Assembly: GCA_964019165.1 (NCBI GenBank)
Contig: OZ025287.1
Location: forward strand, 3,462,017 to 3,526,016
Length of the DNA stretch: 64,000 nt
Direction: 5' to 3'
Origin: Mastigias papua
Lineage: Eukaryota; Cnidaria; Scyphozoa; Rhizostomeae; Mastigiidae
Positions 25,137 through 45,393 of the stretch are shown one piece after another (position 1 is the first letter of the stretch; every line of letters starts with the position of its first letter). A model generated the notes under the pieces. That model had not been told where the DNA came from and did no database searches. It saw only the letters and a program-made list of their open reading frames with translations. Made by a program: the position numbers and the translations under genes.

Positions 25137-25177
25137 GCAATACATGTTTCGGATTGTTCCAATCCATCATCAGTTGC
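25137..25177 (-). ncRNA. Hammerhead-ribozyme-like motif, left end of PLE 1
   Basis: Exact inverse copy of the motif at 27840-27880: GCAA, CTGATGA, hairpin, GAAA, CATG, TA, TTGC on the minus strand. Confidence 0.65.
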
Positions 25178-25293
25178 TAATTACAATGAAAAACTTCTTG
25201 GTACATAAACAAACGTTAAATCATCAATCGAATTTATTAGTCGAAAAAGGAATCAATGTAGCGAAAACAGGTAAGAACGGTTAAGAAGAATAG

Positions 25294-26338
25294 CTAAAAA
25301 CTTAATGAAAAGTTGTAATGCTGAATCTGCTTATTTAAATCAGGTCTTTCCCATTGGATATGTAACGCTTCTTTAATTTTAAGTTTAAAAGAAGTGTTTG
25401 CAGAATCCAATACTGTAAAACAACTATCGTTACATGCCTCTTTACAAGCAGCTGAACCTTTAAGATGTTTAAAAATATTTGAATTTTTATCAGTAAATAA
25501 ATGCTCTCGCACTCGAGTAGATAAATGTCGGCTTGTTTCACCAATATACACGGAATTACATCCGGCACATTTAAATTTATACACTACATAAGAGCGGAGC
25601 GTTCTGGGCACATAATCTTTAACCGAGATCAAATTTTTAACCTTAAAGGAAGAAAAAGCTAACTTTATTTTAATACTGTTACAGTATGTATTAACAAGCA
25701 TACGCACTTTACCTTGAGTAAAATTGGAGAGCTTAAGATATGGCAATTTGAAATAAGCAGTGGTAATATCAGTAGATGAAGTTGAAGTTTTAGAACTACG
25801 AGCATTACCAAGATACGAATTGACTACCCGGCTTATAAGATATTCAGGATATTGATTCTTTTTAAGAACAAAATAAAGTTTTTTAACATCATCATTAAAT
25901 TTGAGAAGAGTATTATTAATTCTGTAGGCTCTATCCACTAAAGTACGAATAAGACCAATCTTATAAGAAAAGGAAGTGAAGCTGAAAAAGTTAGTGAGTA
26001 AACCAGTAAATGTATTTTTGCGATGTAATGACGTTAAGAGACAAGATGGGTCTTTATTATCAACACAGACATCAAGAAAAGACAACTTCTGGTTAATTTC
26101 CTTTTCAATAGTGAATTTGATGTTAGGGTGCTGTGAGTTGAGAAAATCAAAGAATGATAAGGCATCTTGCTCAGTATTGAAAAGACAAAAAGTATCATCA
26201 ACATAACGTCGATAAAGCTGAACAGAAGGACCTTGATACTTATTAAGCCATATATTTTCATGATGCCCAAGGAATAAATTAGCTAACACAGGGGCAAGTG
26301 GAGAGCCCATAGCAACACCATCTACTTGGTCATAGACC
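25294..26338 (-). pseudogene. Truncated PLE RT/GIY-YIG frame (inverted arm)
   Basis: Same protein sequence as the plus-strand frame from YDQVDGVAMGSPLAP to the C-terminus, including RRYVDDTF and the GIY-YIG block. It is cut at the palindrome junction, so it lacks the N-terminal RT motifs. The open frame runs on to 26427 only through unrelated antisense sequence. Confidence 0.9.
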
Positions 26339-27723
26339 ACGTACCACCGTTTAGGCCTATTGTGTCTTCTGTCAATACATATAATTATAGATTGGCTCAA
26401 TATTTGTGTACTCTTCTTCAGCCTCATCTACCTGATACATATACTATTTCTGATTCTTTCTCCTTTGTCCAAGAGCTTAACAGTGTTGATATTTCTGGTA
26501 AATTTATGGTCTCGTTTGATGTTGAAAGCTTATTTACCAATATTCCTCTTAAAGAGTCTATTGATCTTGCTGTTTCATATATTGCTGAAGGAAACCCTAA
26601 CCTCAAGCTTTCCATAACTGAACTCACTAAGCTTTTTTCAATCGCAACCTCTCAAACCCACTTTCTTTTTAACGGTAAGGTCTATGACCAAGTAGATGGT
26701 GTTGCTATGGGCTCTCCACTTGCCCCTGTGTTAGCTAATTTATTCCTTGGGCATCATGAAAATATATGGCTTAATAAGTATCAAGGTCCTTCTGTTCAGC
26801 TTTATCGACGTTATGTTGATGATACTTTTTGTCTTTTCAATACTGAGCAAGATGCCTTATCATTCTTTGATTTTCTCAACTCACAGCACCCTAACATCAA
26901 ATTCACTATTGAAAAGGAAATTAACCAGAAGTTGTCTTTTCTTGATGTCTGTGTTGATAATAAAGACCCATCTTGTCTCTTAACGTCATTACATCGCAAA
27001 AATACATTTACTGGTTTACTCACTAACTTTTTCAGCTTCACTTCCTTTTCTTATAAGATTGGTCTTATTCGTACTTTAGTGGATAGAGCCTACAGAATTA
27101 ATAATACTCTTCTCAAATTTAATGATGATGTTAAAAAACTTTATTTTGTTCTTAAAAAGAATCAATATCCTGAATATCTTATAAGCCGGGTAGTCAATTC
27201 GTATCTTGGTAATGCTCGTAGTTCTAAAACTTCAACTTCATCTACTGATATTACCACTGCTTATTTCAAATTGCCATATCTTAAGCTCTCCAATTTTACT
27301 CAAGGTAAAGTGCGTATGCTTGTTAATACATACTGTAACAGTATTAAAATAAAGTTAGCTTTTTCTTCCTTTAAGGTTAAAAATTTGATCTCGGTTAAAG
27401 ATTATGTGCCCAGAACGCTCCGCTCTTATGTAGTGTATAAATTTAAATGTGCCGGATGTAATTCCGTGTATATTGGTGAAACAAGCCGACATTTATCTAC
27501 TCGAGTGCGAGAGCATTTATTTACTGATAAAAATTCAAATATTTTTAAACATCTTAAAGGTTCAGCTGCTTGTAAAGAGGCATGTAACGATAGTTGTTTT
27601 ACAGTATTGGATTCTGCAAACACTTCTTTTAAACTTAAAATTAAAGAAGCGTTACATATCCAATGGGAAAGACCTGATTTAAATAAGCAGATTCAGCATT
27701 ACAACTTTTCATTAAGTTTTTAG
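26326..27723 (+). CDS. PLE reverse transcriptase with C-terminal GIY-YIG endonuclease, 5'-truncated
   Basis: 465 codons, uninterrupted. RT motifs: FRPIVSSVNTYNY at residues 9-21, MVSFDVESLFTNIPL at 61-75, DGVAMGSPLAPVLANLF at 124-140 and the catalytic RRYVDDTF at 161-168, then LSFLDVCV. Near residues 371-395 lies the GIY-YIG core, CAGCNSVYIGETSRH, with STRVREHL following. This domain order is the hallmark of endonuclease-bearing PLEs, which prime reverse transcription at the chromosomal nick. The first Met lies in the inverted arm, so the true protein started further upstream and the copy is 5'-truncated. The frame is otherwise clean, consistent with recent insertion. Confidence 0.93.
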   Translation: MVIDHVPPFRPIVSSVNTYNYRLAQYLCTLLQPHLPDTYTISDSFSFVQELNSVDISGKFMVSFDVESLFTNIPLKESIDLAVSYIAEGNPNLKLSITELTKLFSIATSQTHFLFNGKVYDQVDGVAMGSPLAPVLANLFLGHHENIWLNKYQGPSVQLYRRYVDDTFCLFNTEQDALSFFDFLNSQHPNIKFTIEKEINQKLSFLDVCVDNKDPSCLLTSLHRKNTFTGLLTNFFSFTSFSYKIGLIRTLVDRAYRINNTLLKFNDDVKKLYFVLKKNQYPEYLISRVVNSYLGNARSSKTSTSSTDITTAYFKLPYLKLSNFTQGKVRMLVNTYCNSIKIKLAFSSFKVKNLISVKDYVPRTLRSYVVYKFKCAGCNSVYIGETSRHLSTRVREHLFTDKNSNIFKHLKGSAACKEACNDSCFTVLDSANTSFKLKIKEALHIQWERPDLNKQIQHYNFSLSF

Positions 27724-27839
27724 CTATTCTTCTTAACCGTTCTTACCTGTTTTCGCTACATTGATTCCTTTTTCGACTAATAAATTCGATTGATGATTTA
27801 ACGTTTGTTTATGTACCAAGAAGTTTTTCAATGTAATTA

Positions 27840-27880
27840 GCAACTGATGATGGATTGGAACAATCCGAAACATGTATTGC
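27840..27880 (+). ncRNA. Hammerhead-ribozyme-like motif, right end of PLE 1
   Basis: Helix I GCAA/TTGC, core CTGATGA, helix II GGATTG/CAATCC (6 bp, loop GAA), GAAA, mini helix III with palindromic ACATGT, predicted cleavage after TA. One extra T sits between CTGATGA and helix II, a departure from the textbook core. Hammerheads in PLE terminal repeats are established knowledge; activity here is inferred. Confidence 0.7.
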
Positions 27881-27948
27881 ACACTTAAAAGCATTGTCGT
27901 ATTTTTTCGTCTTATATCTACTCTTATATCATCGAGAAATTTTGGGAA

Positions 27949-43798: not shown

Positions 43799-44031
43799 AA
43801 TATATATATATATATATATATATATATATATATATATATATATATATATATATATATATATATATATATATATATATATATATATATATATATATATATA
43901 TATATATATATATATATATATATATATATATATATATATATATATATATATATATATATATATATATATATATATATATATATATATATATATATATATA
44001 TATATATATATATATATATATATATATATAT
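43799..44031. repeat. (TA)n microsatellite flanking PLE 3
   Basis: About 230 bp of perfect TA, the longest in the window, stopping two bases before the PLE palindrome. Confidence 0.97.
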
Positions 44032-44068
44032 GTCACTATAGCACGAAAAAGCGGAAACATTCTTTTGG

Positions 44069-44109
44069 CATACTGAAAGCTTTTTTCGTCCGACACTCGT
44101 CAGAGTATG
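44069..44109 (-). ncRNA. Hammerhead-ribozyme-like motif, left end of PLE 3
   Basis: Exact inverse copy of 45353-45393. Confidence 0.6.
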
Positions 44110-44575
44110 AAACGTCGGATAACGACCAAAAGGTGAACCGAAATATATAGCCAGATGCGGGTGCACGTGATATGATGAATAATGCGTCTATTTGGCCCTA
44201 TGATTGGCCAATTAGCACCTATTCACCATTGTTTACTTGAAGAGTCCAAGTGAAAAAACGAACTCTTTTTGTTTACACAAGACTGGGTTTTGAGTCTTGA
44301 TGTAAACCGATTGCAAAACACCTAAATGAAAGGACGATCTTGCTTGCCCAATGATCCGAAAATTATCGTCTGTATATGTTTTGGCGCATTCTGGATTTGT
44401 TAGAAGATGTTGTCCTATGGCCGAATCACTTTTCATTTTAGAATTAGAGTTTTTACATGTACGAGGCGGCTGTTCTCTTGTTGTAGTGTTTTTCGTCCTG
44501 ATGCTCGTGGGTACATGTTGTTTTATTCTGATGAAATGTTGGCTAGTTTTTCCCTGACAATGGATATCCAGAACA

Positions 44576-45229
44576 ATGACAATGGACAATGGACTTGACA
44601 ATGGATATCCAGAAGATGTCCTTGTTTCTTGCATTAAGGAAAAACTAGCCAACATTTCATCAGAAAAACGGTTTGGTCCTGAAAAGTGCCCGGTTTACCT
44701 GAAATTGCCCTGGATTGGAAATGTTTCATCTAAATTTGAAAACCAAATCAATAAAGCCATTACATCTTGTTTCTATGCTGTGAAGCCCCGTGCGGTTTAT
44801 AATACGAGGGTCATGCTACCATCTGCTAAAAAAGATAGCGTTCCTACCACCCAAAAAAGTTGTGTAGTTTACGAATTTTCGTGCCGATGTGAAGCTCGGT
44901 ACGTAGGGCGCACTACGCAGAGGTTAGCAGATAGAATAAAACAACATGTACCCACGAGCATCAGGACGAAAAACACTACAACAAGAGAACAGCCGCCTCG
45001 TACATGTAAAAACTCTAATTCTAAAATGAAAAGTGATTCGGCCATAGGACAACATCTTCTAACAAATCCAGAATGCGCCAAAACATATACAGACGATAAT
45101 TTTCGGATCATTGGGCAAGCAAGATCGTCCTTTCATTTAGGTGTTTTGCAATCGGTTTACATCAAGACTCAAAACCCAGTCTTGTGTAAACAAAAAGAGT
45201 TCGTTTTTTCACTTGGACTCTTCAAGTAA
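44576..45229 (+). pseudogene. PLE family B GIY-YIG endonuclease fragment (217 codons)
   Basis: Begins near the end of the RT thumb region (GYPEDVLVSCIKEKL), then linker, then SCVVYEFSCRCEARYVGRTT (GIY-YIG core: VYEF...RYVGRT) with RLADRIKQHVP, and a C-terminal AIGQHLLTNPECA, followed by FRIIGQARSSFHLGVLQSVY. The catalytic RT is missing, so the copy is not autonomous. The frame itself is intact, so insertion is fairly recent. The inverted arm codes the same C-terminus on the minus strand (44233-44530). Confidence 0.88.
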
Positions 45230-45352
45230 ACAATGGTGAATAGGTGCTAATTGGCCAATCATAGGGCCAAATAGACGCATTATTCATCATATCACGTGCA
45301 CCCGCATCTGGCTATATATTTCGGTTCACCTTTTGGTCGTTATCCGACGTTT

Positions 45353-45393
45353 CATACTCTGACGAGTGTCGGACGAAAAAAGCTTTCAGTATG
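45353..45393 (+). ncRNA. Hammerhead-ribozyme-like motif, right end of PLE 3
   Basis: Helix I CATACT/AGTATG (6 bp, perfect), core CTGACGA, short helix II in GTGTCGGAC (only 2-3 pairs), GAAA, helix III within AAAGCTT (palindromic AAGCTT), TC before the predicted cleavage. The weak helix II is the main doubt. Confidence 0.6.

What the first reader, a model, noticed from the sequence alone, without database searches (positions are those of the whole stretch)
25137..45393. Hammerhead-ribozyme-like motifs at both ends of three PLEs, with covariation
At 25137-25177(-), 27840-27880(+), 28361-28402(-), 29220-29261(+), 44069-44109(-) and 45353-45393(+) the sequence reads helix I, CTGAYGA, hairpin, GAAA, a tiny palindromic helix III, then a UH site and the closing strand of helix I. 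Between PLE 1 and PLE 2 helix I changes GCAA/TTGC to GTAA/TTAC and helix II changes GGATTG/CAATCC to GGATTT/AAATCC: paired substitutions. Helix III is palindromic in all (ACATGT, AAGCTT), as expected for ribozymes that work as dimers. Hammerheads in PLE terminal repeats are established; active copies here, and especially the weak-helix-II family B version, are inference. The extra T before helix II in PLE 1 and 2 is unexplained.
Basis: partly seen in the sequence, partly recalled or inferred. Interest (0 to 1): 0.75.

Follow-up and report, generated by a model that had tools for sequence, protein, structure and literature searches.

The report
Hammerhead ribozymes in Penelope-like retrotransposons
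The window holds copies of tiny motifs that look like self-cutting RNAs (hammerhead ribozymes), carried at both ends of Penelope-like jumping genes in an animal genome; the motif type is known, but here it comes with a consistent extra nucleotide and sits in back-to-back element copies, which raises the question of how its paired active form can assemble.

Summary
The six motifs are three independent sequences, because each element's arms are inverted copies (99.8-100% identical). Helix III is not palindromic in one (28361-28402, ACATAT); element 3 has AAAAGCTTT. A further family-B motif (17158-17199, minus) was missed.

The genome gives 7,898 core matches against 1,460 for the reversed pattern. 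Sampled families covary in helices I and II, and helix III is palindromic in 62 of 89. A covariance model built from other family-A sequences finds the four family-A motifs (E 2e-13 to 6e-10) but not family B, whose two-base-pair helix II shows no covariation and remains unproven.

The extra T is systematic: 56 of 57 sampled motifs with a 4-6 nt palindromic helix III carry an extra nucleotide before helix II, against 0 of 6 with hairpin helix III and 0 of 5 of family B.

Same-family neighbours are mostly head-to-head (16 of 21, 25 of 28), usually with a tail at one end, and with 12-bp target duplications at six family-B loci. This fits priming on both target strands, but puts the two ribozymes on opposite strands, so these pairs cannot form dimers in cis. 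Cleavage was not tested.

The parts
25088..26338 (-). Element 1, left arm: inverted partial copy of 26679-27929 (RT/GIY-YIG 3' part, terminal repeat, hammerhead); this end lacks the tail; its outer limit blurs into (AT)n by a few bases
   Evidence: 99.84% identity over 1251 bp; RVT_1 and GIY-YIG just under Pfam cut-offs
25137..25177 (-). Hammerhead motif of element 1, left arm: helix I GCAA/TTGC, extra T, helix II GGATTG/CAATCC, helix III ACATGT, H17 = A
   Evidence: read directly; model R1 52.1 bits, E 2.2e-13
26339..27947 (+). Element 1, right arm: 5'-truncated RT + GIY-YIG reading frame (to 27723), terminal repeat, hammerhead, tail
   Evidence: RVT_1 43.9 bits, over cut-off 29.6; GIY-YIG 20.5 bits, under cut-off 22.6; limits
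27840..27880 (+). Hammerhead motif of element 1, right arm
   Evidence: E 2.2e-13
27924..27947 (+). Tail present only at the right end of element 1 (read as the stretch between two RT start sites)
   Evidence: comparison of outward arms
28316..28774 (-). Element 2, left arm, no tail
   Evidence: 99.78% inverted copy of 28848-29306; GIY-YIG 25.0 bits, over cut-off 22.6
28361..28402 (-). Hammerhead motif of element 2, left arm; helix III ACATAT, not palindromic
   Evidence: model R1 E 5.6e-10
28848..29327 (+). Element 2, right arm with tail 29307-29327
29220..29261 (+). Hammerhead motif of element 2, right arm: helix I GTAA/TTAC, extra T, helix II GGATTT/AAATCC, helix III ACATGT, H17 = T
   Evidence: E 1.2e-11
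44033..44529 (-). Element 3 (family B), left arm, no tail
   Evidence: 100% inverted copy of 44933-45429
44069..44109 (-). Family B hammerhead-like motif, left arm: helix I CATACT/AGTATG, helix II two base pairs, helix III AAAAGCTTT, H17 = C
   Evidence: not found by model R1
44558..45455 (+). Element 3, right arm: GIY-YIG-like reading frame (to 45229), terminal repeat, motif, tail 45430-45455
   Evidence: GIY-YIG 17.3 bits, under the cut-off 22.6
45353..45393 (+). Family B hammerhead-like motif, right arm
17158..17199 (-). Further family B motif not in the finding; helix I and CTGACGA/GAA intact, A15.1 changed to T
   Evidence: 81.6% copy of element 3, motif read
23683..23724 (-). Decayed family B motif (GAA core lost)
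   Evidence: 83.5% copy

Best explanation
These are minimal type I hammerhead ribozymes in the terminal repeats (pLTRs) of GIY-YIG Penelope-like elements. In element RNA the motif lies about 35-70 nt upstream of two neighbouring reverse-transcription start sites. The element's enzyme primes on both strands of an AT-rich target from this same leader region, giving head-to-head inserts that carry a copy of the ribozyme at both outer ends and, as a rule, a short tail at one end. Family A motifs are probably active: helix III is too short to close well in one RNA, so two RNAs pair through the palindromic helix III, and cleavage after H17 splits element transcripts. Because genomic pairs are mostly head-to-head, the partner most likely comes from another RNA molecule or a rare tandem copy, possibly helped by the element's protein. 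The extra T is a regular part of this short-helix-III class and would adjust the core or helix II stacking. Shown: sequence, covariation, class-wide extra nucleotide in the sample, head-to-head layout, one-sided tail, 12-bp target duplications. Inferred: cleavage, dimerisation, dual-strand priming, and the role of the extra nucleotide.
For: Covariation: helix I 106 of 114 cells paired in 38 distinct motifs, shuffles 63.8 on average, 0 of 5000 reach it; helix II 83 of 90 in 30 distinct strings, shuffle maximum 76. On six non-window family-A sequences 48 of 48 cells pair and the covariation score is reached by 0 of 500 shuffles; a model from these six finds the four family-A motifs. Motif 81% identical between elements 1 and 2, against 46% upstream and 63% downstream. 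7,898 core matches against 1,460 reversed; family-A pattern 730 against 0. RT and GIY-YIG domains. Head-to-head 16 of 21 and 25 of 28 same-family neighbour pairs. Tail at one end in 14 of 16 C1 pairs by my reading and in 12 of 13 family-B pairs. 12-bp target duplications at six of six family-B loci outside (AT)n with the exact motif at both ends. In PAc, a lizard Penelope-like element, both target strands are cut and extended and RT starts at two adjacent internal sites; its hammerhead cleaved when its protein was added (PMC11167929, passages).
Against: No cleavage data. Rfam finds nothing, though it also misses better-formed copies. In one search the count of doubly changed pairs (6 of 8) and of further pair types were reached by 36 and 23 of 500 shuffles. 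Helix III of 28361-28402 is broken. Element 2 has H17 = T, a UU site, which I recall as poorer than UC or UA. Family B: helix II two base pairs, no covariation, competing folds. Predicted dimers are mostly not double hammerheads. Both ends carry the tail in 2 of 16 C1 pairs and at L038. PAc insertion in vitro did not need ribozyme activity, and no RNA reads ended at its cleavage site.
Confidence: 0.8

Rival explanations
1. The stem-loop with the CTGANGA/GAAA core is conserved as a binding site for the element's protein next to the RT start, and catalysis is lost or incidental.
For: It lies just upstream of the RT ends. In PAc, cleavage was seen only with protein and insertion did not need cleavage (PMC11167929). 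Some motifs cannot pair helix III (28361-28402) or have a weak helix II.
Against: The unpaired core is kept in families whose helices differ (the core was part of the search pattern, so only its association with paired helices is informative), and helix III stays a palindrome while changing sequence (ACGT, ACATGT, ACTAGT). A binding hairpin does not need either. PMC11167929 also says that a Penelope-like hammerhead had self-cleaved at 3-25 mM Mg2+ in earlier work.
Confidence: 0.12
2. Relics: the copies in the window descend from active ribozymes but are themselves dead, because the elements are 5'-truncated and the motifs only drift.
For: All three elements are truncated and inverted; one motif has lost its palindrome; the family-B copy at 23683 has lost the core.
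Against: All six motifs of the finding keep core and helix I; 40 full-length family-B matches are 98-100% identical, so that family is recent. This rival is compatible with the main reading at family level.
Confidence: 0.3
3. The head-to-head layout arises by self-priming on an antisense template rather than by priming on both target strands.
For: Proposed for rotifer Penelope elements from palindromes at inverted junctions (PMC3846280, passages). Palindromic junctions are also seen here (L041).
Against: The two ends usually stop at two different fixed positions, with the tail on one. This matches two RT start sites, as found for PAc, whose enzyme extends both strands (PMC11167929).
Confidence: 0.2
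4. Chance matches to a loose motif.
For: The core is short and A+T-rich DNA gives some matches: 7 in 100 shuffles, two of them scoring as high as real ones; 1,460 reversed-pattern matches in the genome.
Against: Expected 0.07 per window against 6 found; family-A pattern 730 against 0 in the genome; covariation.
Confidence: 0.01

Closest known systems
Minimal type I hammerhead ribozymes of Penelope-like elements (Cervera and de la Pena 2014; Lunse, Weinberg and Breaker 2017; neither held, known here from passages of reviews PMC7761336, PMC6155905, PMC6466107)
   Same: Type I layout, minimal or palindromic helix III, in pseudo-LTRs of Penelope-like elements, thousands of dispersed copies in animal genomes
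   Different: Here 56 of 57 sampled short-helix-III motifs carry an extra nucleotide, A or T save one C, before helix II. I could not check whether those two papers report it. Neighbouring copies are mostly head-to-head rather than tandem.
PAc (Poseidon of Anolis carolinensis) hammerhead and insertion mechanism, PMC11167929 (passages)
   Same: Hammerhead next to internal RT start sites, tail between two RT start sites, AT-rich targets, GIY-YIG Penelope-like element
   Different: PAc is described as tandem; the pairs here are mostly head-to-head. PAc activity was measured, here not.
Rotifer Penelope elements, PMC3846280 (passages)
   Same: Inverted pLTRs head-to-head, 31-bp tail optionally on one of the inverted pLTRs, 8-10 bp target duplications where present, palindromes at junctions
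   Different: No hammerhead mentioned in that text ('hammerhead' 0 occurrences); duplications here 12 bp at six family-B loci
(+) CChMVd viroid hammerhead with an extra A (PMC3705267, figure legend seen; De la Pena and Flores 2001 title only)
   Same: One extra nucleotide in the hammerhead; its place between A9 and helix II is recalled, not read
   Different: Viroid, type III motif as recalled; here mostly A or T, in type I retrotransposon motifs
Metazoan retrozymes, PMC7229834 (passages)
   Same: Type I hammerheads; genome copies with hairpin helix III (L007, L040, L046) look like this canonical type
   Different: Retrozymes are short non-coding tandem repeats; the window elements have RT/GIY-YIG coding arms and are head-to-head

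Membership tests
Penelope-like minimal type I hammerhead | CUGANGA ... GAA core with A15.1-U16.1 and UH cleavage site | tested here: met
   all six motifs of the finding; the missed motif 17158-17199 has T at 15.1
Penelope-like minimal type I hammerhead | Helix I open at the ends, paired | tested here: met
   4 bp in elements 1 and 2, 6 bp in 3; covaries over sampled A- and C-type families
Penelope-like minimal type I hammerhead | Helix II formed | tested here: met
   family A: 6-7 bp in the window, with covariation over families. Family B: 2 bp and no covariation, i.e. inconclusive for that family
Penelope-like minimal type I hammerhead | Helix III tiny or palindromic | tested here: met
   ACATGT in three of four family-A motifs, ACATAT in the fourth; AAAAGCTTT in family B
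Penelope-like minimal type I hammerhead | Self-cleavage at H17 | not testable with these tools
   needs transcription in vitro
Double hammerhead acting in cis | Two motifs in tandem on one strand (stated for eukaryotes in PMC6466107) | tested here: not met
   motifs of each window element lie on opposite strands; same-strand pairs 4 of 21 and 1 of 28 in two samples
Double hammerhead acting in trans | Two RNA molecules pair through helix III and cleave | tested here: inconclusive
   RNAcofold gives a double-hammerhead-like lowest-energy dimer for D1, D2 and, with helix III lengthened by one pair on each side, A5 of 16 motifs; other pairings for the rest
GIY-YIG Penelope-like element | RT and GIY-YIG domains | tested here: met
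   element 1 RVT_1 over cut-off, GIY-YIG just under; element 2 GIY-YIG over cut-off; element 3 GIY-YIG 17.3 bits, under cut-off, so inconclusive by domain
GIY-YIG Penelope-like element | Terminal repeats with one-sided tail and target duplication | tested here: met
   one-sided tails in all three window elements; duplications hidden by (AT)n there, 12 bp at L029, L030, L032, L033, L036, L037 of family B
Rfam Hammerhead_1 (RF00163) | Match over the gathering score | tested here: inconclusive
   no match; Rfam also missed hairpin-helix-III copies and RF00163 rang in none of 14 control genomes
Metazoan retrozyme | Short non-coding tandem repeat | tested here: not met
   elements 1-3 have coding arms and are inverted

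The most novel reading that the evidence does not exclude
The palindromic helix III is first of all an RNA-RNA tether. It joins two element RNAs in one insertion complex so that each target strand is primed from its own template, which yields the head-to-head inserts. Hammerhead cleavage is a by-product or switch of that pairing, much as palindromic loops join two retroviral genomes. The extra nucleotide before helix II marks this dimer-only class, since sampled motifs with a hairpin helix III lack it. Motif-only palindromic inserts (arms ending about 3-14 nt before the core) would then be leader-only products that mark the RNA's 5' end.
Probability: 0.12. Interest if true: 0.8.

Novelty: new member of a known kind. 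Interest (0 to 1): 0.5.

Why it matters
[quoted passage not shown] This genome gives many covarying families in one host, a clean association in the sample between the extra nucleotide and the short helix III, and an arrangement that rules out in-cis dimers for most neighbouring pairs. That turns 'do they work as dimers, and with which partner' into a direct test. The one-sided tail over several families supports priming on both target strands outside the one lizard element studied in vitro.

Tried and rejected
Rfam scans and RF00163 on the genome: negative but uninformative.

Family B: an outer helix I (CTTTTGG/CCAAAAG) with a bulge complementary to loop II looked like a tertiary contact in element 3. 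Other copies have CTTTCGG or CTAAAG there, so I dropped it. The TCCGAC/GTCGGA complementarity persists with one G-U change in one copy and one mismatch in another; it may compete with the hammerhead fold.

The extra T as a start codon (A9-T-G10.1 reads ATG): my own reading of the frames meets stops within a few codons in several families, so I dropped it as a general explanation.

A TATA-like stretch about 35 nt before the core in one family as evidence of a start site at the motif: only suggestive, not used.

Relatives in viral contigs: 65 stretches matched a pattern, none confirmed. A first mixed alignment misaligned short helices III; I used six family-A sequences instead. Searches of the genome with the end of element 1 and with the copy at 17 kb, and for the genome-wide number of tight palindromic pairs, did not complete.

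
Full report
Checking the motif. The six stretches named in the finding read as stated, with two corrections. The left copy of element 2 (28361-28402, minus) has ACATAT where its right copy has the palindrome ACATGT. Element 3 has AAAAGCTTT, an eight-base palindrome with one extra A. A structural descriptor gives six hits in the window, with the helix lengths of the six motifs, and 7 in 100 dinucleotide shuffles; the best two shuffled hits score 12, real ones 8-13. 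A looser descriptor adds one unrelated place at 50566, minus. The two arms of each element are inverted copies: 25088-26338 with 26679-27929 (99.84%), 28316-28774 with 28848-29306 (99.78%), 44033-44529 with 44933-45429 (100%). So there are three independent motifs, and the covariation in the window rests on element 1 against element 2. Outside the finding, copies of element 3 lie at 17097-17611, 18345-18560 and 23642-23774, with pieces in 32631-32871. They give a further motif at 17158-17199 (minus, A15.1 changed to T) and a decayed one at 23683-23724 (minus).

The elements. The right arm of element 1 has a reverse transcriptase domain over the Pfam cut-off and a GIY-YIG domain just below it; element 2 has GIY-YIG over the cut-off; element 3 only a weak GIY-YIG below it. 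Protein relatives are numerous (3,993 at E up to 0.001 of 7,990 scored); the closest is 99% identical, and the one named with an organism among the 120 listed is from Exaiptasia at 54%. The host looks cnidarian: a fucosyltransferase gene in the window is 62% identical to a protein labelled Seg1727.1 GoldUCD, a label I recall as Aurelia; other named relatives in the list, at lower identity, are corals and anemones.

The genome. The window lies in a 346.8-Mb assembly. CTGAYGAN{4,20}GAAAC occurs 7,898 times against 1,460 for the pattern read backwards. I fetched stretches around most of the first 100 listed places on contig C1. Families by helix III and extra nucleotide: A (extra T, once C; ACATGT or ACTAGT), C (extra A, less often T; ACGT), B (no extra, AAAGCTTT type), D (no extra, hairpin helix III). 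In the 100 listed strings, helix II of at least 3 bp needs an extra nucleotide in 61 (46 A, 14 T, 1 C), needs none in 7, and is weaker in 32.

Covariation. To avoid choosing the cleavage site by helix I, I fixed it by the shortest palindrome after GAA. Such a palindrome exists in 62 of 89 occurrences, 52 of them ACGT, against 9 of 89 when tested 12 nt downstream; the search pattern fixes the first two letters as AC, so this control is approximate. Among 38 distinct motifs, 106 of 114 helix I cells pair; shuffling the partners gives 63.8 on average and never reaches 106 in 5,000. For 30 distinct helix II strings 83 of 90 cells pair (shuffle maximum 76). These sequences are related, so shuffles overstate certainty, but several pair types occur. 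On six family-A sequences from outside the window 48 of 48 cells pair; the covariation score and the number of doubly changed cells are reached by 0 of 500 shuffles, the number of doubly changed pairs (6 of 8) by 36 and of further pair types by 23; slid partners give at most 46% paired. Those six had been picked with scans that favour pairing, so the 100% is partly by selection; one search is the cleaner test. A covariance model from the six finds the four family-A motifs of the window at E 2.2e-13 to 5.6e-10 and nothing else better than E 2.3; two of its six training sequences share helix I with element 1. Family B is not found. Between elements 1 and 2 the motif is 81% identical (34 of 42), the flanks 46% (53 of 116) and 63% (42 of 67).

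The extra nucleotide. Of 80 C1 motifs with at least two helix II pairs, those with a 4-6 nt palindromic helix III carry an extra nucleotide before helix II in 56 of 57 cases; hairpin helix III 0 of 6; family B 0 of 5; 12 others, 9 with and 3 without the extra, were left out of this comparison. The presence of the extra nucleotide was decided by which reading gives the longer helix II. A pattern that demands the extra T and ACATGT has 730 matches in the genome and 0 reversed; the 18 distinct helix II strings in the first 100 all pair by at least 4 bp once the T is skipped. An extra core nucleotide has a precedent in the plus-strand CChMVd hammerhead (PMC3705267, figure legend seen).

Layout. 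Same-family neighbours are head-to-head in 16 of 21 pairs within 4 kb and in 25 of 28 within 4.5 kb in the family-A list; both lists are the first 100 places, the two samples share a few pairs, and many copies have no neighbour in range. I read the outward arms of 16 head-to-head pairs: 14 have the tail at one end, 2 at both; two of the 14 share an arm, one was assigned by resemblance of its tail to another, and in one of the two-tailed pairs the arms belong to different subfamilies. In family B, 12 loci show both ends with the exact motif and all 12 have the tail at one end. A later check finds a thirteenth, L038, with the tail at both ends; L031 was unclear and L028 has two copies on one strand. 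These loci were fetched with a query that includes the tail, so only the partner end is a free observation. At the six family-B loci of those 12 whose flanks are not (AT)n (L029, L030, L032, L033, L036, L037) the flanks share exactly 12 bp; L038 shares only 6. All three window elements have the tail on the right only. This matches PAc, whose enzyme extends both strands and starts at two adjacent internal sites (PMC11167929, passages), and the rotifer elements with inverted pLTRs and an optional one-sided tail (PMC3846280, passages), for which self-priming on antisense RNA had been proposed.

Motif-only inserts. In three C-type groups, 30 of 40 copies show no similarity to another sampled copy beyond about 14 nt upstream of the core, leaving aside matches within (TA)n runs and between copies of the same composite locus; the other 10 keep 57-60 nt (my reading). 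For two of the three groups the sample holds no clear long copy, so some of the 30 may be long copies without a partner. Several are tight palindromes with the two cores 2-50 nt apart. In family B this is rare (2 of 51 copies; that sample favours long copies). The simplest reading is that the RNA begins just before the motif and that RT from the tail region can copy only this leader. A TATA-like stretch about 35 nt upstream in one family agrees, but this is inference.

Mechanism and limits. The motif is a good hammerhead in family A. A helix III of six bases can hardly close within one RNA, so pairing of two RNAs is expected, as published for this class (Lunse et al., title and review statements only). 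In the window the two motifs of each element are on opposite strands, so the partner must come from elsewhere. Predicted dimers show a double-hammerhead-like lowest-energy form for only three of 16 motifs (A5, D1, D2) and other pairings for the rest. PAc's hammerhead cleaved only with its protein, although the same paper mentions self-cleavage of a Penelope-like hammerhead in earlier work, and no RNA reads ended at its cleavage site. Family B stays open: 40 full-length matches are 98-100% identical, so it is young, but it has the weakest fold. No cleavage was measured, and the two founding papers could not be read.

I recounted against the calls. 

Noticed in passing
L041:1001-1016, L040:842-878, L043:798-827 and 1849-1872, L050:798-861: Tight back-to-back inserts: two inverted hammerhead cores 2-50 nt apart with (TA)n on at least one side and a tail on one side; motif-only products of insertion.
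   Followed up: partly
L044 cores at 865 and 910 (-), L045 cores at 907 and 952 (-): Two hammerhead cores 45 nt apart on the same strand, with repeated CTGATGA pieces between, as if RT jumped at the RNA end.
   Followed up: partly
L007:1522 (-), L040:848 (-) and 872 (+), L046:937 (-) and 1139 (+): Hammerheads with a hairpin helix III (ACTTTAAGT, ACAGGCTTGT) and no extra nucleotide, retrozyme-like, yet those of L040 and L046 sit head-to-head with a tail at one end by my reading.
   Followed up: partly
45343-45373: Family B: TCCGAC before helix I, GTCGGA in the helix II segment and CTGAC in the core can pair in ways that exclude one another; a possible switch or simply a poor fold.
   Followed up: partly
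window 45270-45460 copies (L009-L038): Family B is young: 40 full-length matches, scored from 1,900 candidates, are 98-100% identical.
   Followed up: partly
31319-31756 (-): Looks like a decayed Penelope-type RT fragment (VAMGS...NIFVNFHE by eye); Pfam finds nothing.
   Followed up: no
46228-48183 (+), 36526-37644 (+): Other reverse transcriptase reading frames (RVT_1 over the cut-off), LINE-like by eye; the first is 651 aa long and open.
   Followed up: no
21745-23034 (-) and 53599-54822 (+): Two fucosyltransferase genes (Glyco_transf_10), closely similar by eye, about 31 kb apart in inverted orientation.
   Followed up: no
28729-28893: The junction of element 2's arms folds as a long hairpin that scores as MIR169_6 below the cut-off; probably an artefact of the inverted repeat.
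   Followed up: partly
32534-32579: Nearly perfect GC-rich palindrome (CCCTCGAATAAGCCCCC...); relation to the element 3 pieces at 32631-32871 not examined.
   Followed up: no
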